46,328 bases of DNA, taken from positions 1 to 46,328 of IMG/VR virus record IMGVR_UViG_3300018481_000032; one strand, given 5' to 3'. Each line of letters opens with the position of its first letter. Positions within the stretch are counted from its first letter, which is position 1. Origin of the DNA: a virus. The position numbers were made by a program, and so were the translations under genes. This document shows positions 1-46,328 of this stretch, one piece after another. Under the pieces are notes generated by a model. The model ran no database searches and was not told the DNA's origin. It saw only the letters and a program-made list of their open reading frames with translations.

Positions 1-123
1 CGTCCCACCACATACCCATGGGGGTACGGACGCTCCTGAGTGCACCACGTGCGGGGCTGCCCGACCACCCACCCCAGCGATAGAAAGGCTAAAGATGCCT
101 GAGGATCTGGAAGTCAAGCAATA
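1..123. repeat. Direct terminal repeat, left copy
   Basis: These 123 bases recur exactly at 46206-46328. The repeat contains the ribosome site and first ten codons of the gene at 95, so it is not a separate element. The usual explanation is the overlap left when an assembler closes a circular or circularly permuted molecule. A true short terminal repeat is possible but less likely, because the boundary falls inside a gene. Confidence 0.95.
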
Positions 124-1018: not shown

Positions 1019-1303
1019 ATGGAGCGGTACCAGATGTACTCAAGCCGAGAGCTCTTCGAGATGATTCGCAGCAATCTCAACGCGTTGGCAAGAGCTCTCG
1101 ATGGGGTCTATCCCGACGAGCCCTATCCCGACCCGAGAGACATCGCTCTCTACGCGAAGCACACCCCCTTCGACAAGTTCATGGAGAACATGAACGAGCA
1201 TTACGAGTTGATCGGTCGACAGCTGGATGTCAACAAGCTCTTTGCTGAGATCACTCTCGAGAACCGAGAGATCGCGAATGAGCTGAGACGTCGCGTCCCA
1301 TAG
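1019..1303 (+). CDS. Hypothetical helical protein
   Basis: This 94-residue soluble protein has unknown function. The ATG is preceded by GAAAGG about 7 bases away. The sequence is largely amphipathic helix broken by a Pro/Asp/Tyr-rich loop (YPDEPYPDPRD, about residues 31-41), and the C-terminus is Arg-rich (ANELRRRVP). No catalytic motif, signal peptide or membrane segment is visible. Its upstream neighbour is the hairpin element at 945-986. The next structured element and promoter begin about 60 bases after its stop, so it probably ends a transcription unit. Confidence 0.65.
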   Translation: MERYQMYSSRELFEMIRSNLNALARALDGVYPDEPYPDPRDIALYAKHTPFDKFMENMNEHYELIGRQLDVNKLFAEITLENREIANELRRRVP

Positions 1304-1366
1304 AACTTCCCTTGGAGCTGATGGATCAGTACGGGGGAGGCCGGCGGATTGGAAACCCGCTATGAC

Positions 1367-1416
1367 AACTGAATAGCCGGTAGGGGTCGGCATCCCCCCC
1401 GCTTGGCCCCTACCGG
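1367..1416 (+). other. AACTGAATAGC motif followed by perfect GC-rich hairpin
   Basis: This is the second copy of the arrangement at 558-608. AACTGAATAGC (1367-1377) runs into a perfect ten-pair stem (1377-1386 with 1407-1416) with a C-rich loop. No U-tract follows. The first of the nine conserved promoter-like elements starts six bases downstream. Confidence 0.45.
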
Positions 1417-1421
1417 TGTAG

Positions 1422-1456
1422 TTCGCAAGATCCACATGGGTTGTAATGAGACCTAC
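1422..1456 (+). promoter_or_regulatory. Conserved early element (copy 1 of 9)
   Basis: TTCGCA, 14 bases, then TGTAATGAGACCTAC. Within the 14-base spacer an RCA triplet sits at positions 7-9, as in every copy. TGTAAT is one base from the -10 consensus, which suggests a promoter; the ATG of the next gene is about 26 bases beyond TGTAAT. Confidence 0.75.
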
Positions 1457-1472
1457 TACCCAAGGAGACCAC

Positions 1473-1604
1473 ATGAAGCACATCAAGCGTTTCTTCGTCA
1501 ACCTGTTCGGTGTGGAGCCCATGACCAACCGTCTGGACGCCTACCTGCAGCACGTTGACGAGCAGCGCCGGATGCCCGCCAAGCAGTGGAAGACTTTCGA
1601 GTAA
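1473..1604 (+). CDS. Small basic protein
   Basis: This 43-residue protein is of unknown function. It is expressed from element copy 1, with AAGGAGACC ahead of the ATG. The N-terminus MKHIKRFFVNLFGVEP is a short basic-amphipathic helix that could touch a membrane; the rest is polar and charged. It is a single-gene cassette: element, ribosome site, gene, then an intrinsic terminator seven bases after the stop. Similar small cassettes occur at 2323, 34886 and 36407. Confidence 0.65.
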   Translation: MKHIKRFFVNLFGVEPMTNRLDAYLQHVDEQRRMPAKQWKTFE

Positions 1605-1611
1605 CCCTCAC

Positions 1612-1641
1612 AGACAGGTGCCTACACGGCATCTGTCTTTT
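1612..1641 (+). terminator. Intrinsic terminator
   Basis: The stem AGACAGGTGCC pairs with GGCATCTGTCT (11 pairs, one G-U) around a five-base loop and ends in TTTT. It closes the cassette at 1473 and stands three bases before the next conserved element. Confidence 0.85.
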
Positions 1642-1643
1642 AC

Positions 1644-1678
1644 CACGCAATATCTACACGGCTTGTAATGAGACCTAC
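1644..1678 (+). promoter_or_regulatory. Conserved early element (copy 2 of 9)
   Basis: CACGCA, 14 bases with ACA at positions 7-9, then TGTAATGAGACCTAC. It lies directly between a terminator and the gene at 1693, as expected of a promoter. Confidence 0.75.
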
Positions 1679-1692
1679 TAGAAAGGACCATT

Positions 1693-1923
1693 ATGGCCGC
1701 CACCGATTCAACCGAGTTCGTTGTTGCTATCCACAACATCCTGACCATCGGCGCGGATCTCGTCGAATTGTTGAACAGAGATGTACGCCCTGAAACCCAG
1801 GAAACGGTATCCGCTGTCACAACAGTCGTCGAGACCCAAGCCCGACTGATCAGAATGCTGACGGAGAGCCAGCTCGAACTGACGGACAAGATCGACGACA
1901 TCGTCGCCAGATACTCCGACTAG
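1693..1923 (+). CDS. Hypothetical helical protein
   Basis: This 76-residue protein of unknown function is driven by element copy 2. The ATG follows GAAAGG by 6 bases. The sequence is almost entirely predicted helix with a heptad-like spacing of Leu, Ile and Val (for example IGADLVELLNRDV and LIRMLTESQLELTDKIDDIV), so a small coiled coil or helical bundle is likely. It has no membrane segment and no known motif. A terminator begins ten bases after its stop. Confidence 0.7.
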   Translation: MAATDSTEFVVAIHNILTIGADLVELLNRDVRPETQETVSAVTTVVETQARLIRMLTESQLELTDKIDDIVARYSD

Positions 1924-1932
1924 CCCCTCAAG

Positions 1933-1960
1933 ACCAAGTGCCCCAAGGCATTTGGTTTTT
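1933..1960 (+). terminator. Intrinsic terminator ahead of the acetyltransferase gene
   Basis: ACCAAGTGCC pairs with GGCATTTGGT (ten pairs, one G-U) and is followed by TTTT. The next gene starts 14 bases downstream with its own ribosome site and no visible promoter between, so the hairpin may act as a leaky attenuator. Confidence 0.85.
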
Positions 1961-1973
1961 CCTAAGGAGAACT

Positions 1974-2282
1974 ATGAAGACATCATCACATTGGTACCGC
2001 TCCGCTCAGGTCAAGCTATGTGAGTGGGACGAAGGCCCAGCGGTTCTTACGGGTATGCACTCTGAGCAGAAGAACCAGGGTCATGCTTCTGAGCTGATGG
2101 AGCAGATATGCCGGGTGTTCGACACCATGGGCATGACCGTTTTACTCGATGCCCAGCCGTATGGAAAGCGTAAGGACGGTCTCGATCAGAAACAGCTGAT
2201 CAAGTTCTACGAGAAATACGGCTTCAAAGTCGCCGACGCAGACCACGGACAGATCTTGATGGAGCGTACCCCTCGCACCTGA
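1974..2282 (+). CDS. GNAT-family N-acetyltransferase
   Basis: This 102-residue protein resembles the acetyl-CoA binding half of the GNAT fold. It has the motif A pattern Q-x-x-G-x-A (EQKNQGHASEL, about residues 31-41) followed by a helix, then QLIKFYEKYGF (75-85), which is the usual C-terminal FYxxxGF helix-turn of the family. GNAT enzymes transfer an acetyl group from acetyl-CoA to an amine; the substrate here is unknown and could be a host or phage protein, or a small molecule. The ATG has TAAGGAGAA ahead of it. It is shorter than most GNATs (about 140-160 residues), so the N-terminal strand set is minimal. Confidence 0.75.
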   Translation: MKTSSHWYRSAQVKLCEWDEGPAVLTGMHSEQKNQGHASELMEQICRVFDTMGMTVLLDAQPYGKRKDGLDQKQLIKFYEKYGFKVADADHGQILMERTPRT

Positions 2283-2306
2283 AACATGGCCTGTAATGAG
2301 ACCTAC
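2272..2306 (+). promoter_or_regulatory. Conserved early element (copy 3 of 9)
   Basis: CTCGCA, 14 bases with ACA at positions 7-9, then TGTAATGAGACCTAC. Unlike the other copies it overlaps the last codons of the preceding gene. Confidence 0.75.
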
Positions 2307-2322
2307 TACCGAAAGGAAAACC

Positions 2323-2505
2323 ATGAACAGGTTCCTGACCAACCTCCGCCGTCAGGCCGAGGAGAACCCCGTCATCGCCATCGGCGTGGGAGCAGCCGCA
2401 GTCACCGCACTGTCCAAGCTCCTATCCGCCAGCAACGAGAACCGGAACTCCAAGGCCTGGGCTAAGGAAGTCAACCGACGCGTGGCAACCAGCCGCTACA
2501 AGTAG
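2323..2505 (+). CDS. Small single-pass membrane protein
   Basis: This 60-residue protein of unknown function has a basic N-terminus (MNRFLTNLRRQ), one hydrophobic Ala/Val-rich segment (about residues 17-38) and a polar basic tail. That suggests one membrane helix. It is expressed from element copy 3 with GAAAGGA before the ATG, and is followed by an intrinsic terminator. Its layout resembles the gene at 36407, which also has a short Ala/Val helix followed by a polar tail behind the same element. Confidence 0.65.
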   Translation: MNRFLTNLRRQAEENPVIAIGVGAAAVTALSKLLSASNENRNSKAWAKEVNRRVATSRYK

Positions 2506-2514
2506 TCCCACAAG

Positions 2515-2541
2515 AGCTAAGTCCCACGGGATTTAGCTTTT
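2515..2541 (+). terminator. Intrinsic terminator
   Basis: AGCTAAGTCCC pairs with GGGATTTAGCT (one G-U, very tight loop) and ends in TTTT. Element copy 4 starts two bases later. Confidence 0.85.
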
Positions 2542-2542
2542 G

Positions 2543-2577
2543 CTCGCATGGATCGCACGGGTTGTAATGAGACCTAC
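2543..2577 (+). promoter_or_regulatory. Conserved early element (copy 4 of 9)
   Basis: CTCGCA, 14 bases with GCA at positions 7-9, then TGTAATGAGACCTAC. It is abutted by a terminator upstream and a ribosome site downstream. Confidence 0.75.
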
Positions 2578-2593
2578 TACCCAAGGAGACACC

Positions 2594-2833
2594 ATGAGTC
2601 CCGACCCCAAGTTCGCTTTCGTGATCGAGAACCACGTCACGTACCGACTGGCCTGTGCCGTGTGGCCCCATCTGACCGAGTTGACATTCGAGCAAGTTCG
2701 CAACAACTTCCTCGTCTTCGACGACCCAGATGGCAAGCCCGCGCTGTACAGCCCAGGCGCTGCTGCTGACAACTTCCGATACATCGAAGACGGACCCCAG
2801 ATCGTCCTCAAGAAAGTCACCCTCACCGAGTAA
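2594..2833 (+). CDS. Hypothetical protein
   Basis: This 79-residue soluble protein has unknown function. The ATG follows AAGGAGAC. It has alternating polar and hydrophobic stretches (FAFVIENHVTYRLA, FLVFDDPDGKPALYS, IVLKKVTLTE) consistent with a small alpha/beta fold. No catalytic signature is visible. It is driven by element copy 4 and followed ten bases later by a terminator, giving another one-gene cassette. Confidence 0.65.
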   Translation: MSPDPKFAFVIENHVTYRLACAVWPHLTELTFEQVRNNFLVFDDPDGKPALYSPGAAADNFRYIEDGPQIVLKKVTLTE

Positions 2834-2842
2834 CTCAAAGGG

Positions 2843-2870
2843 AGGGATGCTACACAGCATCTCTTCTTTT
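2843..2870 (+). terminator. Intrinsic terminator ahead of the 2884 peptide gene
   Basis: The stem at 2843-2851 pairs with 2856-2864 around ACAC, with a G-U pair, and runs into TTCTTTT. The ribosome site of the next gene starts only a few bases later. Confidence 0.75.
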
Positions 2871-2883
2871 CTTAGGAGGAATT

Positions 2884-2964
2884 GTGAAACTTCAACTTTG
2901 GGTTTGGGGACTCATAGTTGTTTTGTACGCGGCAATAGTGATAAGTCTTATTCTAAGGAGGTGA
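2884..2964 (+). CDS. 26-residue membrane micropeptide
   Basis: A GTG start follows TTAGGAGGA. The product is almost one continuous hydrophobic helix: VKLQLWVWGLIVVLYAAIV, then ISLILRR. It would span a membrane once, with a two-arginine end. Its last two sense codons and stop (AGG AGG TGA) are themselves the ribosome site of the helicase gene four bases downstream, so the two genes are translationally linked. The function is unknown; tiny hydrophobic phage peptides can act as lysis, exclusion or envelope-targeting factors. Acceptance rests on the strong ribosome site and clean helix. Confidence 0.6.
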   Translation: MKLQLWVWGLIVVLYAAIVISLILRR

Positions 2965-2967
2965 ACT

Positions 2968-4509
2968 ATGACTCTCAAGCCCCATCAGGAAGAAGCACTA
3001 CTCAAGATGCACAACGGCTGCATTCTGGCTGGTGGGACGGGAGTCGGTAAGTCCTACACCGCTGCTGCGTACTACATGAAGCGGGAGGCGCCCAAAGCGG
3101 TCTACGTCATCACGACAGCCAAGAAACGAGACAGCCTTGACTGGGCTGAGGAGTTCGCTCGCTACGGTGTGGGTCGTACTGCGTCCGTAGCCGGCTTGCT
3201 CACCGTCGACAGCTGGAACAACATCAACAAGTATGCGGAGGTCAAGGATGCCTTCTTCATCTTCGACGAGCAGCGTCTGGTTGGATCGGGCGCATGGACT
3301 AAAGCGTTTATCAAGATTGCTCGGCATAATCGGTGGATTCTGCTCAGTGCTACCCCTGGGGATACCTGGCTGGATTACATACCTGTCTTTGTTGCTAATG
3401 GTTTCTACCGTAACAGGACAGAATTCAAGCGGGAACACGTCATCTACAACACCTACAGCAAGTTCCCAAAGGTCGAGCGATACACAGGCGTAGGGAAGCT
3501 TGTACGGCTGCGTAACAGCCTACTGGTGCAGATGCCGTACATCAGGCACACACGACAGATTTCTAAGATCGTCTCAGTCGACTACGATCGAGACCTATTC
3601 GATAGGGTGGTGAATGACAGATGGCATGTATACGAGAACAGGCCGTTGAGGGACGTAGCGGAACTCTTCATTGTGATGAGGAAGGTTGTCAATTCCGATT
3701 CGACCCGGCTAACGGCTATCCAGCGACTCCTGAAGGTACACCCGAAACTGATTGTCTTCTACAACTTCGACTACGAGCTCGAAGCGTTGCGGAGTTTGTC
3801 CAGCAGGATAGAGATGCAGATCGAATCGAAGCCGGCGAAGATCCGCTCGATGTCATCCAGGACGCAGAAGAGCGAAAGCGAGAGCAACGACTCGGAGAAC
3901 TTGGAGTCTCTGAGGACACCATCCAGTGGCTCAAGGACGAGCTCAGGACCTACGTCATCGCAGCTCTCGAAGAGGAGACTCACAAGCGAAACCTCGAAGA
4001 GTACAAGCGAGAGTGGAACACCCCCATCGGACGAGTCAGGAGCATCACTGAAACAGATGACGGCCTCTTCGTTGATGCAGTCCTCGATCCAATCCTCCAA
4101 GGAGAAGGATCCGTCTACATCACTCCCGACGGAGACATCAGAGATGAAGACCTCAAGGCCCACGTCAACTGGCATAAAGAAGAAGGACACAACTTTTGCC
4201 ATTGCCGAAAGGAACGGCCACAAGCACCAGGCGATCCCGAACACGGATAGCTGGCTGTACCTAGTCCAGTATCAGGCAGGTGCGGAAGGGTGGAACTGCA
4301 TCTCCACAGACGCCATGGTCTTCTACAGCATGACGTACAGCTACAAGAACTTCCACCAGGCCCATGGACGAATTGACCGACTTAACACACCTTATACCAA
4401 TCTCTACTACTATGTGCTTAAGTCCAAGTCTCTCATCGATGTGGCCATCGCAAAGTCGTTGAAAGCCAAAAAGAACTTCAACGAGTCCGATTTCGCCCGT
4501 TCTGAGTAG
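2968..4509 (+). CDS. SF2 (DEAD-like) helicase with low-complexity insertion
   Basis: This 513-residue protein has motif I GGTGVGKS (22-29), a DEAD-like DEQR (100-103), motif III SAT (127-129), and in the second RecA domain FYNFDYELE (264-272), QAGAEGWN (436-443) and motif VI QAHGRIDR (464-471). These fit an ATP-driven nucleic-acid helicase of the phage type encoded beside nucleases. The ATG follows AAGGAGGTGA. Between residues about 276 and 411 the family layout is interrupted by a Ser/Thr/Glu-rich stretch that looks like a wrong-frame translation. Another frame of the same DNA reads as a well-formed protein (see 3621-4250). The flanking helicase motifs are intact and in frame, so the gene may still be functional with a large surface insertion. 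Confidence 0.85.
   Translation: MTLKPHQEEALLKMHNGCILAGGTGVGKSYTAAAYYMKREAPKAVYVITTAKKRDSLDWAEEFARYGVGRTASVAGLLTVDSWNNINKYAEVKDAFFIFDEQRLVGSGAWTKAFIKIARHNRWILLSATPGDTWLDYIPVFVANGFYRNRTEFKREHVIYNTYSKFPKVERYTGVGKLVRLRNSLLVQMPYIRHTRQISKIVSVDYDRDLFDRVVNDRWHVYENRPLRDVAELFIVMRKVVNSDSTRLTAIQRLLKVHPKLIVFYNFDYELEALRSLSSRIEMQIESKPAKIRSMSSRTQKSESESNDSENLESLRTPSSGSRTSSGPTSSQLSKRRLTSETSKSTSESGTPPSDESGASLKQMTASSLMQSSIQSSKEKDPSTSLPTETSEMKTSRPTSTGIKKKDTTFAIAERNGHKHQAIPNTDSWLYLVQYQAGAEGWNCISTDAMVFYSMTYSYKNFHQAHGRIDRLNTPYTNLYYYVLKSKSLIDVAIAKSLKAKKNFNESDFARSE
3621..4250 (+). CDS. Possible nested gene inside the helicase gene
   Basis: This frame stays open for 209 codons. From about 3786 to 4194 it has the look of real coding sequence. 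It reads RSVAEFVQQDRDADRIEAGE, then EERKREQRLGELGVSEDT, TPIGRVRSITETDDGLFVDA and GEGSVYITPDGDIRDED, with the genome's preferred CTC, GTC, ATC, CGA and GAC codons. The helicase frame over the same bases is low-complexity Ser/Thr. The only in-frame start is ATG 3621, far upstream inside conserved helicase sequence and with a weak ribosome site (GGTGG). It may be a nested gene, a segment reached by frameshifting, or a domain thrown out of frame by two compensating indels. I recognise no family. Confidence 0.4.
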   Translation: MACIREQAVEGRSGTLHCDEEGCQFRFDPANGYPATPEGTPETDCLLQLRLRARSVAEFVQQDRDADRIEAGEDPLDVIQDAEERKREQRLGELGVSEDTIQWLKDELRTYVIAALEEETHKRNLEEYKREWNTPIGRVRSITETDDGLFVDAVLDPILQGEGSVYITPDGDIRDEDLKAHVNWHKEEGHNFCHCRKERPQAPGDPEHG

Positions 4510-5205: not shown

Positions 5206-5262
5206 AGAAGGGAAGGAATGTGATTGCCACATTGTATCTCAAATTTGCTGAAAGGAGACAAC

Positions 5263-5592
5263 ATGCTTGAGAGAACGTATCAAACGCGTCTCATCAAGAA
5301 GTTGTATCGGGCATTCCCTGGCTGCGTCGTTCTGAAGAATGACAGCGGATACCAACAGGGCATCCCCGATCTCTCCATCTTCTACGGCATTCACTGGGCC
5401 TGGCTTGAGGTTAAGCCGAAGCGGCCTCTAGGACCTGAGGATTATGAGGTGAACCAGGAGTATTTCATCGACCTGGCTTCTCAGATGTCCTTTGGTGCCT
5501 GCATCTATCCCGAGAACGAAAAGGAAGTCCTACATGCTCTTCAACAAGCATTCAGATCTCGTAGGCCGGCACGCGTTTCTCAGCGCCAGTAA
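5263..5592 (+). CDS. VRR-NUC domain nuclease
   Basis: This 109-residue protein matches the small stand-alone VRR-NUC nucleases of phages, a PD-(D/E)xK branch related to Holliday-junction resolvases. The catalytic pattern is clear: GIPDLSIFYGIHWAWLEVK (33-51), giving D36, E49 and K51. VRR-NUC enzymes cut branched or flap DNA, so a role in resolving replication or recombination intermediates before packaging is likely. The ATG follows AAAGGAGA. Its end overlaps the start of the next nuclease gene by 59 bases. The C-terminus is Arg-rich. Confidence 0.85.
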   Translation: MLERTYQTRLIKKLYRAFPGCVVLKNDSGYQQGIPDLSIFYGIHWAWLEVKPKRPLGPEDYEVNQEYFIDLASQMSFGACIYPENEKEVLHALQQAFRSRRPARVSQRQ

Positions 5593-6094
5593 GTACCACT
5601 GGGTAAACTACTCAGACGAGAAGCTCGACCGTATGTTCATGGGTGCCATGACTGCACAACGAGGGAGTGAGCTTCACGCCTTCGCAGAGATGGCTATTCG
5701 TTTGGGACAGAAGATGCCTACCAAGCGAACAACCATGAACATGTATGTGAATGAGGCTATCGGGTACCGCATGACACCTGAGGTTCTTCTTCACTACTCA
5801 GACAACTGCTTCGGAACTGCAGACGCTGTCTCTTTCCGTGCAAACAGGCTGAGAATTCATGACCTTAAGAATGGGGTCACCGCAACGTCCATGATGCAGC
5901 TCAAGATCTATGCTGCGTTGTTCTGCCTCGAGTACCGGTTCAAGCCGGTCGACATCAACATCGAGCTGCGCATCTACCAGAACAACGATGTCATCACCGA
6001 GATCCCTGATCCCGACGAGATCACCCACATCATGGACAAGATCATTTCGTTCGACAAGCGCATCAACGCAATCCGAATGGAGGCAATGTCGTGA
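5534..6094 (+). CDS. RecB/Cas4-like PD-(D/E)xK exonuclease
   Basis: This 186-residue protein carries the ordered RecB-like nuclease motifs: RGSELHAFAE (43-52, E46 and H48), GTADAV (94-99, D97), HDLKNG (109-114, D110 and K112) and QLKIY (122-126, the QxxxY motif). Such proteins degrade or process DNA ends and in phages act in recombination or replication. The ATG at 5534 has AAGGAAG 6 bases before it, although it lies inside the end of the VRR-NUC gene. The gene overlaps the next by four bases (GTGA), so the two nucleases and the polymerase-like gene form one translationally coupled set. No RecT-like annealing partner is visible. Confidence 0.85.
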   Translation: MLFNKHSDLVGRHAFLSASKYHWVNYSDEKLDRMFMGAMTAQRGSELHAFAEMAIRLGQKMPTKRTTMNMYVNEAIGYRMTPEVLLHYSDNCFGTADAVSFRANRLRIHDLKNGVTATSMMQLKIYAALFCLEYRFKPVDINIELRIYQNNDVITEIPDPDEITHIMDKIISFDKRINAIRMEAMS

Positions 6095-8769
6095 TCATCG
6101 AAGAGGATGACTACTTGGCGCACTACGGCATCCTCCGCAGGTCGGGCAGGTACCCGTGGGGTTCTGGTGGATCTGTAAACGTTCGGAGTCGAAACTTCCT
6201 TGATCACCTCGCAGAGATGCGACGTGCAGGGATGTCAGACACCGAGATCGCTCGAGGCGTTGGTATGACGAGCACTGAGTTTCGTGCAGCCAACACCATC
6301 GCCAAGAATGCTGCCCTGCAGGCAGACATCAACCAGGCTCAGCGGTTGAAGGCGAAGGGCATGTCGAACATCGCAATCGGTAAGAAGATGGAGCGGAATG
6401 AGTCATCCGTTCGTGCTCTTCTTGCATCTGGAGCAGCAGACCGCGCCAATCTCCTTCAGTCTGTGTCAACCAAGTTGCGGGATGAGGTTGACAAGAAGGA
6501 GATCATCGACATCGGTAGTGGTGTTGAGAACTGGCTTGGTGTCGCCAAGGACAAGCTGGCTGTTGCTGTAGCCATGCTCAAGGAAGAGGGCTACACGGTT
6601 CATAAGTTCAAGAACCCTCAGGTTGCCACCGGCAAGAACACTGAGTACAAGGTTCTCGCCAAGCCCGGCATGACTCAGAAGGATGTCTGGCTTCGACGCA
6701 ATGATGTGCAGCAGGTCATGGATCGTTCGGATGATGGCGGTCGTTCGTTCTCCAAGACTCTCCCGCCTCTGTCCATCAGTTCGAAGCGCCTGGCTATCCG
6801 CTACAAGGAAGATGGCGGAGACAAGCTTGACGGTGTTGTTTACGTCAGGCCTGGCGTTGCTGATCTCTCGCTCGGAGCCAAGAGGTATGCACAGGTCCGC
6901 ATTGCCATCGATGGTACTCACTACATCAAGGGTATGGCGATGTACAAGACTGACCTCCCCAAGGGTGTAGACCTCGAGTTCAACACGAACAAGACCAGCA
7001 CCGGCCGCAAGCTCGATGCGTTGAAGGAGATGGATAAGGACCCCGACAGTCCTTTCACATCTCAGATCCGTGATCAGCTCAAGTCAAGAGATCCGAAGAC
7101 AGGTGTCGAGAAAGTAACCTCGGCAATGAACATCGTCTACGGTGAAGGTGACTGGGACGATTGGTCAAAGAGCATCTCGTCGCAGGTTTTGTCCAAGCAG
7201 ACTCCCAAGCTTGCTAGGGCACAACTCGACATGACCTATCAGAGCCGAAAGAATGAGCTCGACACGATCATGGCTCTCACGAATCCGACCGTTCGTAGGC
7301 ATCTCCTCGAGAAGTTTGCGGAAACCACGGATTCTGCTTCTGTTCACATGAAGGCTGCTCATCTTCCTCGTCAGAGGTCGCAGGTCATCCTTCCAATCAC
7401 CACCATGAAGGACACTGAGGTATACGCTCCGAACTTCAAGAATGGCGAGCGTGTAGCTCTCATCCGCTATCCTCATGGCGGAACCTTCGAGATTCCTGAA
7501 CTCACTGTGAACAACAGACATCGAGATGCAAAGCGTCTTCTAGGAGATGCGCAGGATGCAATCGGTATCAACGCCAAGGTGGCAGAACGTCTTTCTGGGG
7601 CAGACTTCGATGGGGACACAGTTCTCGTCATTCCTCAGACACCTGGCCGAGAGCTGAAAACAAGCCCTGCTCTTGCTGGTCTTCAGGGATTCGACCCAAT
7701 CGCAGAATACCCTGCTTATGAGGGAATGAAGCGAATGGATTCCAGAACCAAGCAAACTCAGATGGGTCTGGTTTCGAATCTCATCACAGACATGACCATC
7801 CAAAGGGCCAGCACAGACGACATCGCTCGTGCAGTGCGGCATTCCATGGTGGTCATCGATGCAGAAAAGCACAATCTCAACTGGAAGCTTTCTGCAGAAG
7901 TAAACGGAATCGCTGCCTTGAACAAGAAGTACCAGAACCGAGCTCAGGGTGGTGCATCAACCCTGATTTCAAGAGCTAGTTCTGAGAAGCGGGTTCCTGA
8001 AAGGGTGCCCCGTTCCATGACTAGAGGTGGCCCTATAGACAAGGCCACTGGAGCATTGGTGTTTGAGCCCACCAATAGGGTGACTGTAGGCAGGGATGGC
8101 AAAATTAACCCCCGCACTACCAAGTCAACTAAGTTGGGTGAAGAAACCGATGCACATGCCCTTGTTTCAAAAGATGGGGGCACTCTCATTGAGAAGGTCT
8201 ATGCAGACCACTCAAACAAGCTCAAAGCGATGGCGAATGTTGCTAGAAAAGCCGCCGTCACCACACAAAGTACCCCCTACTCTCCCAGTGCAAAAGTGCA
8301 CTATAAGGCAGAAGTTAGTTCTCTGGTAGCTAAGCTTCATCTAGCTGTCAGTAATAGGCCTTTGGAGAGGCAAGCTCAGCTATTGGCCAATGCCAAGATC
8401 GCTGCTAAGAAAGCAGCTAATCCGAACATGGATGATGATGATCTGAAGAAGGTGAAGTACAAGGCCTTGGCTGAGGCACGTCATGCAACAGGTGCTGATA
8501 AGCAGCAGATAGACATCACTCCTACAGAGTGGGCTGCTATACAGGCTGGTGCAATCACCAATCACAGACTCACAGAGATCCTTCGTAATACAGACCTTGA
8601 TAAGGTCAAGGCTCTGGCCACACCTAGGGTAGCAACAGTGATGACAACAGCTAAGCAGAACAGAGCTAAGCAGATGCTTGCATCAGGCTACTCTGCTGCT
8701 GAAGTTGCTGAGCACCTAGGCGTCGCCGTGTCCACACTCAAGAGTAGTGTGATCAGAGAGGAAGAGTGA
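6091..8769 (+). CDS. DFDGD-motif protein, putative single-chain RNA polymerase
   Basis: This 892-residue protein has the signature SGADFDGDTVLVIP with DFDGD at 505-509, the metal-binding motif of the beta-prime double-psi barrel. RYPHGG upstream resembles the beta-prime NRAPTLH segment. HYIKGMAMYKTDLPKG (277-292, K280) resembles the beta-subunit RHGNKG region with its conserved lysine. Two-barrel single-chain polymerases are known in phages (YonO of SPbeta) and as QDE-1. It also has two helix-turn-helix-like repeats near the N-terminus (about 35-60 and 88-112) and one at the C-terminus (about 858-882). The GTG start overlaps the previous stop. Likely role: phage transcription or RNA priming. 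Activity is inferred from motifs only. Confidence 0.65.
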   Translation: MIIEEDDYLAHYGILRRSGRYPWGSGGSVNVRSRNFLDHLAEMRRAGMSDTEIARGVGMTSTEFRAANTIAKNAALQADINQAQRLKAKGMSNIAIGKKMERNESSVRALLASGAADRANLLQSVSTKLRDEVDKKEIIDIGSGVENWLGVAKDKLAVAVAMLKEEGYTVHKFKNPQVATGKNTEYKVLAKPGMTQKDVWLRRNDVQQVMDRSDDGGRSFSKTLPPLSISSKRLAIRYKEDGGDKLDGVVYVRPGVADLSLGAKRYAQVRIAIDGTHYIKGMAMYKTDLPKGVDLEFNTNKTSTGRKLDALKEMDKDPDSPFTSQIRDQLKSRDPKTGVEKVTSAMNIVYGEGDWDDWSKSISSQVLSKQTPKLARAQLDMTYQSRKNELDTIMALTNPTVRRHLLEKFAETTDSASVHMKAAHLPRQRSQVILPITTMKDTEVYAPNFKNGERVALIRYPHGGTFEIPELTVNNRHRDAKRLLGDAQDAIGINAKVAERLSGADFDGDTVLVIPQTPGRELKTSPALAGLQGFDPIAEYPAYEGMKRMDSRTKQTQMGLVSNLITDMTIQRASTDDIARAVRHSMVVIDAEKHNLNWKLSAEVNGIAALNKKYQNRAQGGASTLISRASSEKRVPERVPRSMTRGGPIDKATGALVFEPTNRVTVGRDGKINPRTTKSTKLGEETDAHALVSKDGGTLIEKVYADHSNKLKAMANVARKAAVTTQSTPYSPSAKVHYKAEVSSLVAKLHLAVSNRPLERQAQLLANAKIAAKKAANPNMDDDDLKKVKYKALAEARHATGADKQQIDITPTEWAAIQAGAITNHRLTEILRNTDLDKVKALATPRVATVMTTAKQNRAKQMLASGYSAAEVAEHLGVAVSTLKSSVIREEE

Positions 8770-8774
8770 GACAC

Positions 8775-9023
8775 ATGGTACAACACATGTTGACCACTGT
8801 TGACAATCCTTTCGATCCATTCACTCAGTTTGATGAGTGGAACGCATATGACGTAGCTGCTGGGTACAACACAACATCCTTTCTAGCAAGGGTGATTCGT
8901 ACATCAGTAGAGATGTCAGAAGCAGATCAGGATCTCGAGTATGAGTCAGCAGTTGATGAGATTGTAAGGGAGAACGTCCTTGGCCTCTATCGTAAGGTAG
9001 AAGTTTCAAGAGAAAATTCCTAA
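8775..9023 (+). CDS. Conserved phage protein (NPFDPFTQFDEW family)
   Basis: This 82-residue soluble protein belongs to a family I recognise from many siphophages by NPFDPFTQFDEWNAYD followed by GYNTTSFLARV. Its function is not established. It usually sits immediately after the DFDGD protein, as here (five bases between), so a role with that protein or in early-to-late switching is possible but unproven. The start was chosen for GAGGAAG about 10 bases upstream; GTG 8766 and ATG 8787 are alternatives. It is the last gene before the candidate packaging region. Confidence 0.8.
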   Translation: MVQHMLTTVDNPFDPFTQFDEWNAYDVAAGYNTTSFLARVIRTSVEMSEADQDLEYESAVDEIVRENVLGLYRKVEVSRENS

Positions 9024-9083
9024 ACTTTCTCATCTGCTTGAGTTGTTTGTGGTTTGAGGATTGGAGAGGCGAAAGATGTGGGG

Positions 9084-9165
9084 GGAGGGGGGTCTCGCAA
9101 AAACTACCCCCCTCCTGCATCGCCGCCCTCCTAAAAATTTCCCCGGGGGGATATTTTCCACAGAC
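9084..9165. other. GC-rich hairpin plus AAAAATTTCCCCGGGGGG element; candidate cos/packaging site
   Basis: A perfect ten-pair stem (GGAGGGGGGT 9084-9093, ACCCCCCTCC 9106-9115) is followed by AAAAATTTCCCCGGGGGG (9133-9150), seven bases, and CCACAGAC (9158-9165). TTTTCCACA is one base from a DnaA box. The block lies just upstream of the putative small terminase and HNH endonuclease genes, where cohesive-end sites of HK97-type phages are often found. The exact cut site cannot be read from sequence alone. The rest of the 9024-9224 gap shows nothing further. Confidence 0.45.
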
Positions 9166-15260: not shown

Positions 15261-15701
15261 ATGGATGCATTGGAGAAAGTTCTCGCGCATTACGGCGTCA
15301 AGGGAATGCGTTGGGGCGTCCGTAGGCGTTCGACATCGTCAGGACCAACAGGCCACGTCACCATCAAGGCGATTCCGGGCCACAAGATCAAGGTCAGTGG
15401 CGGATCGGGCGTCAAGATCTCTGAAGACGCGGTTCGTGCTGTTGCCAACCGACAGGTTGCCAAGAAGAGCGGCACTCACGCCCTTCCCAACGACGAACTC
15501 AAGGCCCTCGTGACTCGGATGCAGATGGAGCAGAACTACAAGCAGCTCCTCGAGAAGCAGCCGAAGAGTCTCACGACTCAGGCGACCGACTTGATCATCA
15601 GCACGGGTCAGGACGAGGTTGCCAAGCTGGTCACGGGCAAAGACACCCTATTCCTCCGCCAGATCCTGGACTCGGGTGGTGGAAGGCACAGAAAGAAGTA
15701 G
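15261..15701 (+). CDS. Conserved phage protein with HYGVKGMRWGVRR motif
   Basis: This 146-residue protein begins with LAHYGVKGMRWGVRR (8-22), a short motif found at the ends of many phage structural and packaging proteins of Gram-positive hosts; its function is unknown. The remainder is basic, with helix in the C-terminal half (NDELKALVTRMQMEQNYKQL) and a final Arg/Lys tail. The ATG follows GGGAGGAGG. Its position directly before the large terminase suggests a head or packaging role. The DFDGD protein at 6091 starts with a related segment (LAHYGILRRSGRYPWGSG). Confidence 0.75.
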   Translation: MDALEKVLAHYGVKGMRWGVRRRSTSSGPTGHVTIKAIPGHKIKVSGGSGVKISEDAVRAVANRQVAKKSGTHALPNDELKALVTRMQMEQNYKQLLEKQPKSLTTQATDLIISTGQDEVAKLVTGKDTLFLRQILDSGGGRHRKK

Positions 15702-15715
15702 AAAGGAGGGTTGAC

Positions 15716-17464
15716 ATGGGTCTATCAAACACGGCCACGCCGGTTTACTACGGCCAGTTCCGCGAAGCGGTGATTCGGGGCGACATCCCAGTGTGTCGGG
15801 AGATCGCACAAGAGATGAACCGCATTGATGCACTCATCGCCAACCCGCTCATCTACTACGACGACCAAGCCGTTGAGGGGTTCGTTCGGTACTGCGAGAA
15901 CGAGCTTACTCTTACCGATGGAGGTGATCTGCATCTCCTCCCAACGTTCAAGCTCTGGGCAGAGCAGATCTTTGGGTGGTTTTACTTCGTCGACCGGACT
16001 GTTTACCAGCCGTCGGAAGATGGTCATGGTGGTCAGTACACCGTCAAGACCTTGAAGAAGCGGTTAACAACAAAGCAGTACCTAATCGTTGCCCGAGGTG
16101 CTGCTAAGTCGATGTATGCGTCCTTCATCCAGTCATATTTCCTCAACGTGGACACGTCGACAACCCATCAGATCACAACAGCACCAACCATGAAACAAGC
16201 AGAAGAAGTCATGTCCCCGATACGCACGGCCATCACACGCGCGAGGGGCCCTCTGTTCAAGTTCCTTACAGAGGGTTCGATGCAGAACACGACGGGCTCT
16301 CGAGCTCTTCGTGTCAAGCTGGCTTCGACAAAGAAGGGCGTTGAGAACTTCCTCACCGGCTCGTTGCTTGAGATCAGGCCGATGTCGATCAACAAACTTC
16401 AGGGTCTTCGACCCAAGATCTCCACCATTGACGAATGGCTCTCCGGAGACATCCGAGAGGACGTCATTGGTGCTGTCGAGCAGGGTGCTTCTAAGCTCGA
16501 CGACTATCTCATCGTTGCCATCAGTTCAGAAGGAACTGTTCGTAATGGCAGCGGTGACACCATCAAGCTGGAGTTGGCGACCATCCTAAAGGGCGACTAT
16601 TTGGCGCCTCATATTTCGATCTTTCACTACAGGCTCGACGAGATCGAAGAGGTAGCTGACCCATCGAAGTGGATGAAGGCTCAGCCCAACATCGGGAAGA
16701 CGATCTCCTACGAGACCTACCACCTGGATGTTGAGCGTGCAGAAAAGGCTCCGGCCACAAGGAATGACATCCTCGCCAAGCGCTTTGGTATCCCCATGGA
16801 GGGATACACATACTTCTTCACCTACGAGGACACTCTCCCGCACCCGCGCGCAAGCTTCTGGCAGATGCCCTGTGCTTTGGGGGCCGACTTGTCAATGGGT
16901 GACGACTTCTGTGCGTTCACGTTCCTCTTCCCACTCCGGAATGGATATTTCGGCGTCAAGACTCGTAGCTACATCACGACTCTTACGTTGTCGAAGCTTC
17001 CGGGTGCTCTTCGGATGAAGTATGACGAATTCGTCAGGGAGGGCAGTCTTCATGTAATGGAGGGCACCGTTCTGGACGTGGATGGTGAGGTTTTCGACGA
17101 CGTCGACGCCCACATCCTCGCCATGCAGTACGACACTCGTGCTTTCGGTTACGACCCGTACAACGCGAAGCCGTTCGTAGAACGGTGGACCTCTGAGAAT
17201 GGTCCGTTCGGTGTTGAGAAGGTAATCCAGGGTGCACGGACTGAATCCGTGCCTCTAGGTGAGCTCAAGATCCTTGCCGAGGAGAGAATGCTCATATTTG
17301 ACGAGGATCTCATGTCTTTCACGATGGGTAACGCCATTACGCTCGAAGACACGAACGGAAACCGCAAACTTCTCAAGCGGCGGCAAGAAGAGAAAATCGA
17401 CAACGTGTCCGCCTTGATGGACGCTTATGTCGCCTACAAGGCCAACAAGGAGGCGTTCGAATGA
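15716..17464 (+). CDS. terL: Terminase large subunit
   Basis: This 582-residue packaging motor has an ATPase and a nuclease domain. The Walker A-like loop is IVARGAAKSMYAS (ARGAAKS 126-132), a variant of the classic GxxxxGKS seen in this terminase branch. Walker B is ISTIDEW (235-241, D239-E240). The nuclease half begins near GADLSMGDD (about 390), where an RNase H-like fold supplies acidic metal ligands. It would pump DNA into the prohead and cut it at the packaging site. The ATG follows AAAGGAGGG. It is directly followed by portal and capsid genes; the small-subunit candidate is at 9418. Confidence 0.95.
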   Translation: MGLSNTATPVYYGQFREAVIRGDIPVCREIAQEMNRIDALIANPLIYYDDQAVEGFVRYCENELTLTDGGDLHLLPTFKLWAEQIFGWFYFVDRTVYQPSEDGHGGQYTVKTLKKRLTTKQYLIVARGAAKSMYASFIQSYFLNVDTSTTHQITTAPTMKQAEEVMSPIRTAITRARGPLFKFLTEGSMQNTTGSRALRVKLASTKKGVENFLTGSLLEIRPMSINKLQGLRPKISTIDEWLSGDIREDVIGAVEQGASKLDDYLIVAISSEGTVRNGSGDTIKLELATILKGDYLAPHISIFHYRLDEIEEVADPSKWMKAQPNIGKTISYETYHLDVERAEKAPATRNDILAKRFGIPMEGYTYFFTYEDTLPHPRASFWQMPCALGADLSMGDDFCAFTFLFPLRNGYFGVKTRSYITTLTLSKLPGALRMKYDEFVREGSLHVMEGTVLDVDGEVFDDVDAHILAMQYDTRAFGYDPYNAKPFVERWTSENGPFGVEKVIQGARTESVPLGELKILAEERMLIFDEDLMSFTMGNAITLEDTNGNRKLLKRRQEEKIDNVSALMDAYVAYKANKEAFE

Positions 17465-17489
17465 CAATTTTCACGGAAGGGGGTGACAC

Positions 17490-18767
17490 ATGGGAATCAG
17501 AGATCGTCTAGTGCATGCATGGAACGTGTTTCTCAACGACGATTACGACCAGAGAAACCCCTTCGGAGAATCAGGTTCCAGCTACAGCACCCCTCCAAGT
17601 CGGCCTCGCATTCGTATCGGCAGCGAAAGAACCATCATCGCGTCGATCTACACACGAATGGCGGTCGATGTGGCGGCAACGTCGATTCGACACGTTCGTC
17701 TCGACGACGAGAAGCGGTACAAGGAAGAGATAGAGAGTGGTCTGAACAGCTGTTTGTCTCTTGCTGCGAACTTGGACCAGCCGGGTCGAGCTTTTCGACA
17801 GGACATCGCGATGTCCTTGTTCGAGAATGGAGTTATCGCTGTTGTTCCTGTCGACACAACGATCAATCCAGACTCAAGTGGTGGTTGGGACATCTTGTCG
17901 ATGCGAGTCGGGACGATCGTGTCCTGGTTCCCGAGCAAGGTCAAGGTCAGCATCTACAACGAGCAGAATGGTCGCCGTCAAGAGGTCACTCTAGACAAGA
18001 AGTTCGTTGCGATCGTTGAGAACCCTCTCTACACCGTGATGAACGAGCCGAACTCGACTCTGCAGCGTCTCATTCGAAAGCTTGGCATCCTGGATGCCAT
18101 CGATGAGCAGTCGGGTTCGGGAAAGCTCGACATCATCATCCAACTGCCTTACGTCATCAAGTCCGAGGGCAAGCGACAGCAGGCTGAGCAACGCCGGAAG
18201 GACATCGAGTTCCAGCTGAAGGGGAGCCAGTACGGTATCGCCTACACGGACGGTACCGAGAAGGTCACCCAGCTGAACCGACCGGCCGAGAACAACCTGA
18301 TGAAGCAGATCGAGTACCTCGTCGACCTGCTCTACGCCCAGCTTGGGTTGACGCCCGAGGTGATGAACGGCACGGCTGACGAATCGGCCATGCTGAACTA
18401 CTACGACCGAACGATCAACCCTATCCTCGACGCCATCGTCGAATCGATGAGGCGGTCGTTCCTCACAAAGACTGCCCGGACCCAGGGTCAGTCGATCGAG
18501 TACTACAAGGACCCGTTCAAGCTCGTTCCGATCTCACAGATGGCCGAGATCGCCGACAAGTTCACCAGGAACGAGATCGTGTCCTCCAACGAGATGCGTC
18601 AAGCCATCGGAATGAAGCCGGCCAAGGATCCGAAGGCGGACGAGCTTCGAAACAGCAACATGCCTCAATCGGAGCTCGGCACTCCGCCTCCTGGTGGATC
18701 GAAACCAGATCCAGAAGATCCAGAAGATCCACCACCAGCGGCGGCGCCAGCCGTCCCCAAGAAGTGA
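17490..18767 (+). CDS. Portal protein
   Basis: This 425-residue protein follows the terminase and precedes the protease-capsid gene, the standard position for the ring at the capsid vertex that connects motor and tail. Typical features are the early helix ASIYTRMAVDVAATS (about 52-66), the wing/stem region, and the conserved loop YLVDLLYAQLGLTPEVMNGT (about 271-290). The tail end is a disordered Pro-rich stretch (PPPGGSKPDPEDPEDPPP), common in portals of this type. The ATG follows GGAAGGGGGTGA. Confidence 0.9.
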   Translation: MGIRDRLVHAWNVFLNDDYDQRNPFGESGSSYSTPPSRPRIRIGSERTIIASIYTRMAVDVAATSIRHVRLDDEKRYKEEIESGLNSCLSLAANLDQPGRAFRQDIAMSLFENGVIAVVPVDTTINPDSSGGWDILSMRVGTIVSWFPSKVKVSIYNEQNGRRQEVTLDKKFVAIVENPLYTVMNEPNSTLQRLIRKLGILDAIDEQSGSGKLDIIIQLPYVIKSEGKRQQAEQRRKDIEFQLKGSQYGIAYTDGTEKVTQLNRPAENNLMKQIEYLVDLLYAQLGLTPEVMNGTADESAMLNYYDRTINPILDAIVESMRRSFLTKTARTQGQSIEYYKDPFKLVPISQMAEIADKFTRNEIVSSNEMRQAIGMKPAKDPKADELRNSNMPQSELGTPPPGGSKPDPEDPEDPPPAAAPAVPKK

Positions 18768-34345: not shown

Positions 34346-34380
34346 GTCGCGAGCTCTACATCCCTTGTAATGAGACCGCC
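34346..34380 (+). promoter_or_regulatory. Conserved early element (copy 5 of 9)
   Basis: GTCGCG, 14 bases with ACA at positions 7-9, then TGTAATGAGACCGCC. It marks the switch from the late block to the second cluster of small-gene cassettes. Confidence 0.75.
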
Positions 34381-34832: not shown

Positions 34833-34867
34833 TTCGCGAAAAACGCAAGCCTTGTAATGAGACCTAC
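34833..34867 (+). promoter_or_regulatory. Conserved early element (copy 6 of 9)
   Basis: TTCGCG, 14 bases with GCA at positions 7-9, then TGTAATGAGACCTAC. A degenerate half-copy (ACA, five bases, TGTAAA) lies 65 bases upstream near 34766. Confidence 0.75.
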
Positions 34868-35079: not shown

Positions 35080-35109
35080 CTCGCGAGAATTACAAGCCTT
35101 GTAATGAGA
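35080..35109 (+). promoter_or_regulatory. Conserved early element (copy 7 of 9), without a coding gene behind it
   Basis: CTCGCG, 14 bases with ACA at positions 7-9, then TGTAATGAGA. Unlike the others it is followed by a compact RNA fold ending in a T-run rather than by a ribosome site. Confidence 0.75.
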
Positions 35110-35167
35110 AGTAAGGTGCCTCACGCACCCTTCACCCGCCAGTGAAGATCACTTCTCATCTCTTTTT
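35105..35167 (+). ncRNA. Putative small structured RNA (three-way junction)
   Basis: An outer perfect stem (TGAGAAGT 35105-35112, ACTTCTCA 35151-35158) encloses two perfect hairpins: GGTGC/GCACC (35115-35119, 35125-35129) and CTTCAC/GTGAAG (35130-35135, 35142-35147). TCTCTTTTT follows. No reading frame fits the segment. It may be a small RNA or an elaborate terminator. The outer stem overlaps the TGTAATGAGA box, so the transcript start decides which. Confidence 0.5.
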
Positions 35168-35195
35168 CACTCACCCAAATATGAAGGAGCACGCC

Positions 35196-35315
35196 ATGTC
35201 TGGAAGCGCGAACTACGGCTGTCTCGGGTTCTTGGGGGACGTCTTCATGACGTTCCTCACCGCAGGGCTCTGGCTCATCTGGATCTTCGTCCGCGAGAAC
35301 CGGCGGAGGAGGTAA
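35196..35315 (+). CDS. 39-residue membrane protein
   Basis: The ATG lies about 10 bases after AAGGAG. The product has a hydrophobic segment (GDVFMTFLTAGLWLIWIFV, 14-32) and ends RENRRRR, so it should insert once with the basic end in the cytoplasm. Its stop overlaps the next start (TAATG), coupling it to another small membrane protein. The function is unknown. Confidence 0.65.
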   Translation: MSGSANYGCLGFLGDVFMTFLTAGLWLIWIFVRENRRRR

Positions 35316-35500
35316 TGATCGAGGTGGGTCGCACTCTCGTCCTCGCATTCATCATCGGGGGTCTCCTCGTTGCCTGGCTGTGCATCTGCATCCTCATCAT
35401 CGGCGAGGTGTACAAGTTCGTTGACATGATCAACGAGAAGCGCAAGTCTCGCCAATTCTTCAAGAAGATCGAGAGGTACCGACGTGACTTCAATTCGTGA
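35315..35500 (+). CDS. Small single-pass membrane protein
   Basis: This 61-residue protein starts at an ATG that overlaps the preceding stop. One long hydrophobic helix (TLVLAFIIGGLLVAWLCICI, about 7-26, continuing LIIGEVY) is followed by a very basic tail (NEKRKSRQFFKKIERYRRDF). It overlaps the DUF6353-like gene by 17 bases, so the three consecutive membrane genes are translationally linked. A role as a partner of the DUF6353-like protein is plausible but only inferred from position. Confidence 0.7.
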   Translation: MIEVGRTLVLAFIIGGLLVAWLCICILIIGEVYKFVDMINEKRKSRQFFKKIERYRRDFNS

Positions 35501-36284
35501 CATTGTCAAGGTGTCGCAACAGCTTCTGTCTGACAACTCGCCGGCGATTCTTACGGGAATCGGCGTCGCAGGCACCATCACCACGTCTCTGCTCATGGGG
35601 AGGGCAGCACTTCGGGCGAACGACATGATCACCAAGGAGCGACTCGCGCTGTTCATGAACGACCCCAAGAACGAGCACGAGCACATCTCCGACTACGACT
35701 TGACCACGCGTGAGAAGGTCGAGCTCACGTGGATCGAGTTCGTACCGCCGGCAGCATCGATGATGCTCACCATCGCAGCCATCGTTGGAGCCAACCGGAT
35801 CGGAACCCGGCGTACGGCAGCGATCGCAGCTGCATATTCGGTCGCGGAGAAGGCCCGTGTCGAGTACGCAGAGAAGGTCGTCGAGCATATCGGCAAGAAC
35901 AAGGAGCGGAAGATCCGCGACGAGGTCCAGCAGGATCGTATGCAGCGTGACTCTGTTGGTCGTCAAGAGGTCTTCGCTACAGGCGGAGGACAGGATCTGT
36001 GCTACGAGAAGTTCACCGGTAGGTACTTCTACAGCAGCATGGAGACCATCAAGCACGCCATGAACAAGGTGAACCATGAGATCAACAGCGGTGTGTACGC
36101 CTCGCTGAGCGATTTCTACGACTACCTCGGGCTCGATCACACGGGGGTGTCGGATGAGCTCGGGTGGAACGGGGACAAGCTGATGGACATCATGTTCACA
36201 ACGACGACGGCTGACGACAACAGGCCATGCATCGCATTCGAGTACCGTGTGGAGCCGATCCGGAACTATTTTCGGGGGCACTGA
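35484..36284 (+). CDS. DUF6353-like membrane protein 1
   Basis: This 266-residue protein has two membrane segments: SPAILTGIGVAGTITTSLLM (19-38) and PPAASMMLTIAAIVGANRIG (about 87-106). A helical region follows (RRTAAIAAAYSVAEKARVEY), then a soluble C-terminal part with EKFTGRYFYSSMETIKHAMN and ending AFEYRVEPIRNYFRGH. The pattern resembles DUF6353, a phage family of unknown function. It is paralogous to 38775: both have NSP(A/H)xL, two helices, an AAYxxxxK helix and a similar tail. The GTG start follows GAGAGGTACC. Confidence 0.7.
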   Translation: MTSIRDIVKVSQQLLSDNSPAILTGIGVAGTITTSLLMGRAALRANDMITKERLALFMNDPKNEHEHISDYDLTTREKVELTWIEFVPPAASMMLTIAAIVGANRIGTRRTAAIAAAYSVAEKARVEYAEKVVEHIGKNKERKIRDEVQQDRMQRDSVGRQEVFATGGGQDLCYEKFTGRYFYSSMETIKHAMNKVNHEINSGVYASLSDFYDYLGLDHTGVSDELGWNGDKLMDIMFTTTTADDNRPCIAFEYRVEPIRNYFRGH

Positions 36285-36354: not shown

Positions 36355-36389
36355 CTCGCGAGAAAAACACGGTCTGTAATGAGATCCTC
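36355..36389 (+). promoter_or_regulatory. Conserved early element (copy 8 of 9)
   Basis: CTCGCG, 14 bases with ACA at positions 7-9, then TGTAATGAGATCCTC. It is the only coding-gene copy with ATCC after GAG. Confidence 0.75.
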
Positions 36390-37634: not shown

Positions 37635-37669
37635 CTCGCGGAGAACACACGTCTTGTAATGAGACCTAC
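37635..37669 (+). promoter_or_regulatory. Conserved early element (copy 9 of 9)
   Basis: CTCGCG, 14 bases with ACA at positions 7-9, then TGTAATGAGACCTAC. It starts only four bases after the stop of the preceding gene. Confidence 0.75.
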
Positions 37670-46205: not shown

Positions 46206-46328
46206 CGTCCCACCACATACCCATGGGGGTACGGACGCTCCTGAGTGCACCACGTGCGGGGCTGCCCGACCACCCACCCCAGCGATAGAAAGGCTAAAGA
46301 TGCCTGAGGATCTGGAAGTCAAGCAATA
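46206..46328. repeat. Direct terminal repeat, right copy
   Basis: This is identical to 1-123 and contains the start of the gene at 95. It shows that the contig closes into a circle of 46,205 bases. Confidence 0.95.

What the first reader, a model, noticed from the sequence alone, without database searches (positions are those of the whole stretch)
6091..8769. 892-residue protein with RNA polymerase double-psi-barrel motifs and three helix-turn-helix-like segments
DFDGD (505-509) and an upstream RYPHGG segment match the beta-prime barrel; HYIKG...DLPKG (277-292) parallels the beta RHGNKG region. Both catalytic halves of a single-chain polymerase could therefore be present, as in SPbeta YonO, but with added N- and C-terminal DNA-binding-like helices that might give promoter recognition.
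Basis: partly seen in the sequence, partly recalled or inferred. Interest (0 to 1): 0.75.

Follow-up and report, generated by a model that had tools for sequence, protein, structure and literature searches.

The report
Phage single-chain RNA polymerase with promoter motif
This phage carries its own one-piece RNA polymerase, distantly related to the cell's multi-part enzyme and already present (but vaguely or wrongly named) in about 250 deposited phages, and the genomes that carry it also share a distinctive repeated promoter-like DNA element that this enzyme probably reads, which would make promoter recognition by this class of polymerase testable.

Summary
In detail: one 892-aa ORF (6091-8769) with DFDGD (505-509), RYPHGG (459-464), HYIKG..DLPKG (277-292) and three HTH segments. 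In 44 relatives the aspartates, R459-P461-H462, K280-G281 and K301 are invariant. A structure model's best PDB matches are QDE-1, plant RDR2 and Thermus-phage single-chain RNAPs, so both barrels are very probably present. The family is not new: it is PHROG 4291, in about 250 phage records (Arthrobacter, Gordonia, Streptomyces, Lactococcus 1706), labelled 'HTH protein' or 'RNA-dependent RNA polymerase'. YonO is only a remote relative. New here: every genome examined carries several (about 6-13) copies of a directional intergenic element, TCGCR-N6-ACA-N5-TRTARTGAGACC, about 25 nt before start codons in the early region. It lacks a -35 and an extended -10, is nearly absent from bacterial genomes, and persists in Lactococcus phages whose polymerase is only 37% identical. 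It behaves as a promoter, and the polymerase is the only conserved HTH protein I found that could read it; direct recognition is inferred. The 1706 homologue was deposited as 'structural protein', and the N-terminus is an invariant, disordered peptide; a virion-packaged polymerase is possible but unproven.

The parts
6091..8769 (+). Single-chain two-barrel RNA polymerase gene, 892 aa, GTG start overlapping the upstream exonuclease stop
6112..6168 (+). N-terminal peptide residues 8-26, YLAHYGILRRSGRYPWGSG: near-invariant but predicted disordered (candidate docking/packaging peptide)
   Evidence: role inferred
6193..6288 (+). HTH 1 (residues 35-66)
6334..6423 (+). HTH 2 (residues 82-111)
6775..7143 (+). 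beta-like barrel (DPBB-B) region, residues about 229-351, with invariant HYIKGMAM 277-284, K301, K312
   Evidence: limits approximate
7375..7638 (+). beta-prime-like barrel (DPBB-A) region, residues about 429-516, with RYPHGG 459-464 and ADFDGD 504-509
7603..7617 (+). catalytic DFDGD
7741..7800 (+). bridge-helix candidate (residues 551-570, long helix after barrel A)
   Evidence: assignment by analogy with QDE-1/gp64
8647..8748 (+). C-terminal HTH (residues 853-886), sigma-region-4/resolvase-like
8766..9023 (+). 85-aa conserved gene (PHROG 4303) directly after the polymerase; function unknown
5224..6094 (+). conserved upstream neighbours: 122-aa gene (equivalent of the VRR-Nuc gene) and Cas4-like exonuclease (PHROG 3953)
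9080..9160 (.). cos-like site; equivalent of the genome ends in Tanis/Scap1 would fall at 9129|9130
   Evidence: by comparison with deposited genome ends
1423..1455 (+). promoter-like element
1645..1677 (+). promoter-like element
2273..2305 (+). promoter-like element
2544..2576 (+). promoter-like element
34347..34379 (+). promoter-like element
34834..34866 (+). promoter-like element
35081..35113 (+). promoter-like element (before the conserved 57-aa ORF 35142-35315)
36356..36388 (+). promoter-like element
37636..37668 (+). promoter-like element

Best explanation
The gene encodes a single-chain, DNA-dependent RNA polymerase of the two-barrel superfamily (beta-like barrel with K280/K301, then beta-prime-like barrel with R459-P-H462 and the Mg-binding DFDGD triad) that transcribes genes of its own phage. 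Its three HTH modules take the place of a sigma factor and recognise the repeated early-region element TCGCR-N6-ACA-N5-TRTARTGAGACC: the HTHs hold the TCGC/ACA part and the AT-rich box melts. Shown by sequence or computation: the intact active-site motifs, the fold class, the HTHs, the element and its promoter-like placement, and its co-inheritance with the polymerase. Inferred: catalysis, DNA rather than RNA as template, direct recognition of the element. Speculative: since the element sits before early genes while the polymerase gene is last in the early region, the enzyme may be carried in the virion and injected. Probabilities by step: two-barrel polymerase 0.95; active phage RNAP 0.85; reads this element 0.6; virion-carried 0.35.
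For: Conservation of all catalytic residues in 44 homologues; RdRP Pfam hits in 37/44; Foldseek to QDE-1 1.5e-8, RDR2 5.5e-7, P74 gp62 6e-7, P23-45-type gp64 7.5e-7 and to viral relatives; collinear YonO motifs. Of the early genes shared with the Lactococcus phages, only the polymerase was found to carry HTHs.
Against: No transcription data. TATAAT is also the host sigma-A -10 sequence. No copy lies before the late operon, whereas YonO transcribes late genes. The pLDDT is moderate (79.7) and pTM 0.61; TM-scores to known RNAPs are low (about 0.3).
Confidence: 0.6

Rival explanations
1. Division of labour: host sigma-A RNA polymerase, helped by a phage activator (as T4 MotA/AsiA at middle promoters: a -30 box plus TATAAT, no -35), reads the early elements, while this polymerase transcribes late genes from another promoter, as YonO does in SPbeta.
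For: The box is a perfect sigma-A -10; the element lies in the early region that must be read before the polymerase is made unless it is injected; SPbeta yonO also sits just upstream of its late operon and YonO transcribes late genes (PMC5467207).
Against: No conserved HTH activator other than the polymerase among genes shared with 1706/P078; no shared late promoter recognised by eye after the cos site; the element is conserved down to the CCCC after the -10, which sigma-A does not need.
Confidence: 0.3
2. A true RNA-dependent RNA polymerase, as several RefSeq records label it, making double-stranded RNA for defence or counter-defence.
For: PHROG and RefSeq label; fold closest to QDE-1 and RDR2.
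Against: All carriers are dsDNA tailed phages; functionally tested phage relatives of the fold (YonO, P23-45 RNAPs) are DNA-dependent (PMC5467207, PMC10770324); three DNA-binding-like HTHs.
Confidence: 0.05
3. A DNA-binding protein that has lost catalysis and acts as a regulator (the 'helix-turn-helix protein' of most deposited annotations).
For: Only the HTHs are found by single-sequence Pfam search.
Against: Mg-binding triad and barrel residues invariant in all 44 homologues, hard to explain without catalysis.
Confidence: 0.05
4. The repeated element is a translational signal like the Start-Associated Sequences of cluster K phages, not a promoter.
For: It lies close upstream of start codons, and such repeats are known in actinophages (PMC7302621).
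Against: A separate ribosome-binding site follows it; one copy abuts a tRNA-Ala gene in ReqiPoco6 whose 5' end is 8 nt after TATAAT; copies often follow T-runs like those of a terminator (33% against 3.6%).
Confidence: 0.04

Closest known systems
PHROG 4291 phage family (Lactococcus 1706 gp75, ReqiPoco6 gp106, Gordonia Tanis gp92, Streptomyces Scap1 gp55)
   Same: Full-length homology (36-57% identity to deposited phages), same catalytic motifs, same HTHs, same neighbours (VRR-Nuc, Cas4 exonuclease, 85-aa protein) and position at the genome end
   Different: Window protein is an ordinary member; its element has TGTAAT where most have TATAAT
YonO of SPbeta (Forrest et al. 2017, PMC5467207)
   Same: Single chain, KG / RxPH / DxDGD / SN-IT motifs in the same order; gene beside the late operon
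   Different: No detectable BLAST similarity, profile match only to barrel A; the YonO alignment ends in conserved CxxC pairs and shows no HTH trio; the SPbeta stretches scanned (record bases 1-70000) lack the element
Thermus phage P23-45 gp64/gp96 single-chain RNAPs (PMC10770324)
   Same: Fold class; phage RNAP linked to a lineage-specific promoter motif; gp96 is a virion polymerase
   Different: No sequence similarity found; gp96 is fused to the tape measure protein
QDE-1 / RDR2 cellular RdRPs
   Same: Best fold match, two barrels on one chain
   Different: Cellular enzymes of RNA silencing, 11-12% identity in the structural alignment
T4 middle promoters (MotA box + TATAAT)
   Same: Element layout: box near -30, -10 TATAAT, no -35 (from my own knowledge)
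   Different: Different box; no candidate MotA-like protein identified here

Membership tests
Two-barrel (DPBB) RNA polymerase superfamily | Mg-binding DxDxD in a beta-prime-like barrel | tested here: met
   DFDGD invariant in 44 sequences
Two-barrel (DPBB) RNA polymerase superfamily | Second, beta-like barrel with catalytic lysines on the same chain | tested here: met
   K280, K301, K312 invariant; model matches QDE-1 and gp64 over almost full length; individual barrel geometry not measured
Two-barrel (DPBB) RNA polymerase superfamily | RNA polymerase activity | not testable with these tools
   needs purified protein
PHROG 4291 | Full-length profile match | tested here: met
   1263 bits, residues 4-887 of 892
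YonO family proper (SPbeta group) | Sequence similarity to YonO | tested here: not met
   BLASTP no match; hhalign E 0.024, probability 2%
YonO family proper (SPbeta group) | Transcribes phage late genes | not testable with these tools
   no expression data
Host sigma-A promoter (for the element) | -35 TTGACA 16-18 nt before the -10, or TGn extended -10 | tested here: not met
   at least 4/6 match in 4.5% of 221 sites (controls 12%); TGn in 1.4%
Virion RNA polymerase (N4, crAss, P23-45 gp96) | Protein present in virions | tested here: inconclusive
   1706 orf75 deposited as 'structural protein' and echoed in ReqiPoco6/Pepy6; source paper not held
T4-like MotA-dependent promoter | Conserved phage activator encoded in all carriers | tested here: inconclusive
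   no HTH protein but the RNAP among genes shared with 1706/P078; shared unknowns remain: 222 aa (PHROG 4079) and DUF6353

The most novel reading that the evidence does not exclude
A single-chain two-barrel RNA polymerase with built-in sigma-like HTHs that is packaged in the virion through its conserved N-terminal HYG..SGRYPWGSG peptide, is injected with the DNA and by itself reads a dedicated early promoter (TCGCR-N6-ACA-N5-TATAATGAGACC), in a large phage lineage whose hosts span Actinobacteria and Firmicutes.
Probability: 0.3. Interest if true: 0.85.

Novelty: new variant of a known kind. Interest (0 to 1): 0.6.

Why it matters
Forrest et al. (PMC5467207) left open which promoter YonO-type polymerases read and whether they need a factor. 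Here a whole phage lineage, with many isolates on laboratory hosts, offers a compact polymerase with its own HTHs and a sharply defined candidate promoter, so the question becomes a simple in-vitro experiment. If direct recognition holds, it would be a one-protein transcription system unrelated to T7 RNAP, and a model of how a minimal two-barrel polymerase can start without sigma. It also shows that labels on about 250 public records ('helix-turn-helix protein', 'RNA-dependent RNA polymerase') probably hide the transcription enzyme of these phages.

Tried and rejected
Single-sequence PDB search: only HTH-like repeats. Profile PDB search with the 44-row alignment: again only HTH/helical repeats, so sequence alone does not reach QDE-1. 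De novo k-mer clustering in 13-kb loci mostly gave coding repeats, but led to the element in L010, L014, L020. SPbeta bases 1-70000 scanned for the element: absent. Search for a shared late promoter after the cos site: none seen by eye. Use of phyletic pattern to separate the polymerase from other core genes: failed, all are co-inherited. Rfam on the window: nothing. Literature: no paper found in the held library describes this element or the YonO link for these phages; subscription papers are not held, so this is weak evidence of novelty. Papers on 1706 and on the ReqiPepy6/Poco6 phages not held. A BFVD hit from phage Qui led to a genome that carries a full polymerase plus an annotated stand-alone HTH gene. 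A fecal phage contig with a match to the N-terminal peptide only (H140) contained no GRYPxGSG in the stretch read.

Full report
WHAT IS THERE. The frame 6091-8769 (+) is open for 892 codons, GTG start. PHROG 4291 matches residues 4-887 with 1263 bits. tblastn finds relatives in 250 phage records, 249 of them over at least 80% of the length, the best 57% identical, and 67 loci in IMG/VR up to 62%. In a 44-sequence alignment the invariant columns include H277YIKGMAM284, P290, G292, K301, K312, R459, P461, H462, N474, N475 and A504DFDGD509. These are residues of the kind expected around the active site of two-barrel RNA polymerases. Single-sequence Pfam sees only HTHs, but across the family 37 of 44 members hit PF05183 RdRP and all hit HTH_23 and Sigma70_r4_2.

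STRUCTURE. AlphaFold2 on the 44-row alignment gave pLDDT 79.7, pTM 0.61. Foldseek against the PDB has seven hits below 0.001, all two-barrel single-chain polymerases: QDE-1 (1.5e-8), maize RDR2, P74 gp62, P23-45-type gp64, Arabidopsis RDR2 in the Pol IV complex; cellular beta-prime follows at 0.02 and worse. The viral library gives Thermus P23-45 RNAP and other phage polymerases. The model's order (strand-rich 229-351 with KG at 280, helices 372-419, strand-rich 429-516 with DFDGD, long helix 551-570) is that described for QDE-1, phi14:2 gp66 and gp64: DPBB-B, connector, DPBB-A, bridge helix (PMC10770324). I could not measure the barrels atom by atom.

RELATION TO YonO. BLASTP between this protein and YonO finds nothing. 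Profile-profile comparison gives one weak local match (E 0.024, probability 2%), but it lands on the right place: R-x-PH, DxDGD and SN-IT align in order. Sub-profiles repeat this at E 0.002-0.003 and pair YIKGMA with WVKGLL, the latter without significance on its own. It works like a YonO-type enzyme by inference; it is not a member of the SPbeta YonO family by sequence.

GENOME CONTEXT. The window ends are a perfect 123-nt direct repeat, so the record is a complete, circularly permuted phage genome. The polymerase closes the early half, after helicase, HNH, VRR-Nuc-type and Cas4-like exonuclease genes, and is followed by an 85-aa gene and a cos-like G-rich site; then come lysis, terminase, portal, protease-capsid fusion and tail genes. 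The same end position and core order hold in Streptomyces, Gordonia, Arthrobacter, Microbacterium, Rhodococcus and Lactococcus phages.

A PROMOTER-LIKE ELEMENT. Nine intergenic repeats in the window share TCGCR-N6-ACA-N5-TGTAATGAGACC, with small departures, and lie just before start codons. A strict pattern with TATAAT found at least 120 stretches in the viral collection, many with several copies (about 0.2 expected by my own estimate from pattern length and collection size), against three stretches in 257 Gb of bacterial and archaeal genomes, all on 3-4 kb contigs. Of 49 contigs of 34 kb or more carrying it, 43 match the polymerase profile (one of these weakly, 31 bits); the six others are linear records, five of which carry the DNA polymerase of this lineage and end before the polymerase's place. 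A weight matrix gives 6-13 copies in each of 12 genomes, the window included, every copy on the coding strand, nearly all early, with column-permuted matrices giving 0-2. In the Lactococcus phages, whose polymerase is 36-37% identical, the element persists: P078 TTTTACATACCCTATAATGARAGGA (about ten copies) and 1706 TCGCATGTTTTACATATACTATAGTAGAAAG and similar (about six copies), with the same spacing.

IT IS A TRANSCRIPTION SIGNAL. In 221 sites there is no -35 (4.5% with at least 4/6 of TTGACA at spacing 16-18, against 12% at control spacings; part of this deficit comes from fixed pattern columns) and no TGn (1.4%); a start codon with ribosome-binding site follows 25 nt (median) after the box in 213 sites; T-runs, as of a terminator tail, precede it in 33% against 3.6%. 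In ReqiPoco6 one copy (L203:14569-14601) abuts a tRNA-Ala that begins 8 nt after TATAAT; a tRNA has no start codon, so the element is not merely a start-associated sequence.

WHO READS IT. Among early genes shared with both Lactococcus phages (helicase, VRR-Nuc, Cas4 exonuclease, polymerase, 85 aa, 222 aa PHROG 4079, DUF6353, DNA polymerase, annealing protein) only the polymerase was found to carry HTHs. This makes it the first candidate. It is not proof: all these genes are co-inherited, and a MotA-like activator with host sigma-A is a fair rival, since TATAAT is the host -10.

VIRION QUESTION. Early genes must be read before the polymerase gene is expressed. Either the host reads them or the enzyme comes with the DNA. 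In favour of the second: orf75 of 1706 was deposited as 'structural protein'; residues 8-26 are predicted disordered (pLDDT below 50) yet among the most invariant; and a similar LAHYG- peptide occurs in the late protein beside the terminase (window 15261-15701) and its counterparts. Each point is weak; the basis of the 1706 label could not be checked.

VERDICT.

Noticed in passing
window 1-123 and 46206-46328: Perfect 123-nt direct terminal repeat: the record is a complete genome (46,205 unique bases), circularly permuted relative to the cos ends of its relatives.
   Followed up: yes
window 9080-9160: cos-like site: G-rich run, C-rich run, TGCATCGCCGCCCT then CCTAAAAATTTCCCCGGGGGG; matches the genome ends of Tanis and Scap1 and is conserved in the relatives inspected.
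   Followed up: partly
window 15261-15701: Late protein beside TerL carries LAHYGVKGMRWGVRR, a peptide that recurs in several different phage proteins (five places in L052); may be a virion-targeting tag.
   Followed up: partly
window 8766-9023: 85-aa PHROG 4303 protein (LTTVDNP..) directly after the polymerase in nearly every genome, including Lactococcus phages; possible functional partner.
   Followed up: partly
window 35484-36284 and 38775-39668: Two copies of DUF6353 (PF19880), unknown function, in the early region.
   Followed up: no
window 19370-19474: 15-nt repeats coding for a repetitive charged stretch inside the protease-major capsid fusion.
   Followed up: no
L312 193-498 (Arthrobacter phage Qui gp228): Stand-alone HTH protein annotated in a genome that also has the full polymerase; a 95-aa Qui HTH protein in BFVD matches the polymerase model; identity of the two not checked.
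   Followed up: no
G029 (95,562-base viral contig) 1224-3950, 16723-17523: Contig with a full polymerase and a second ORF matching only its N-terminal HTH part.
   Followed up: no
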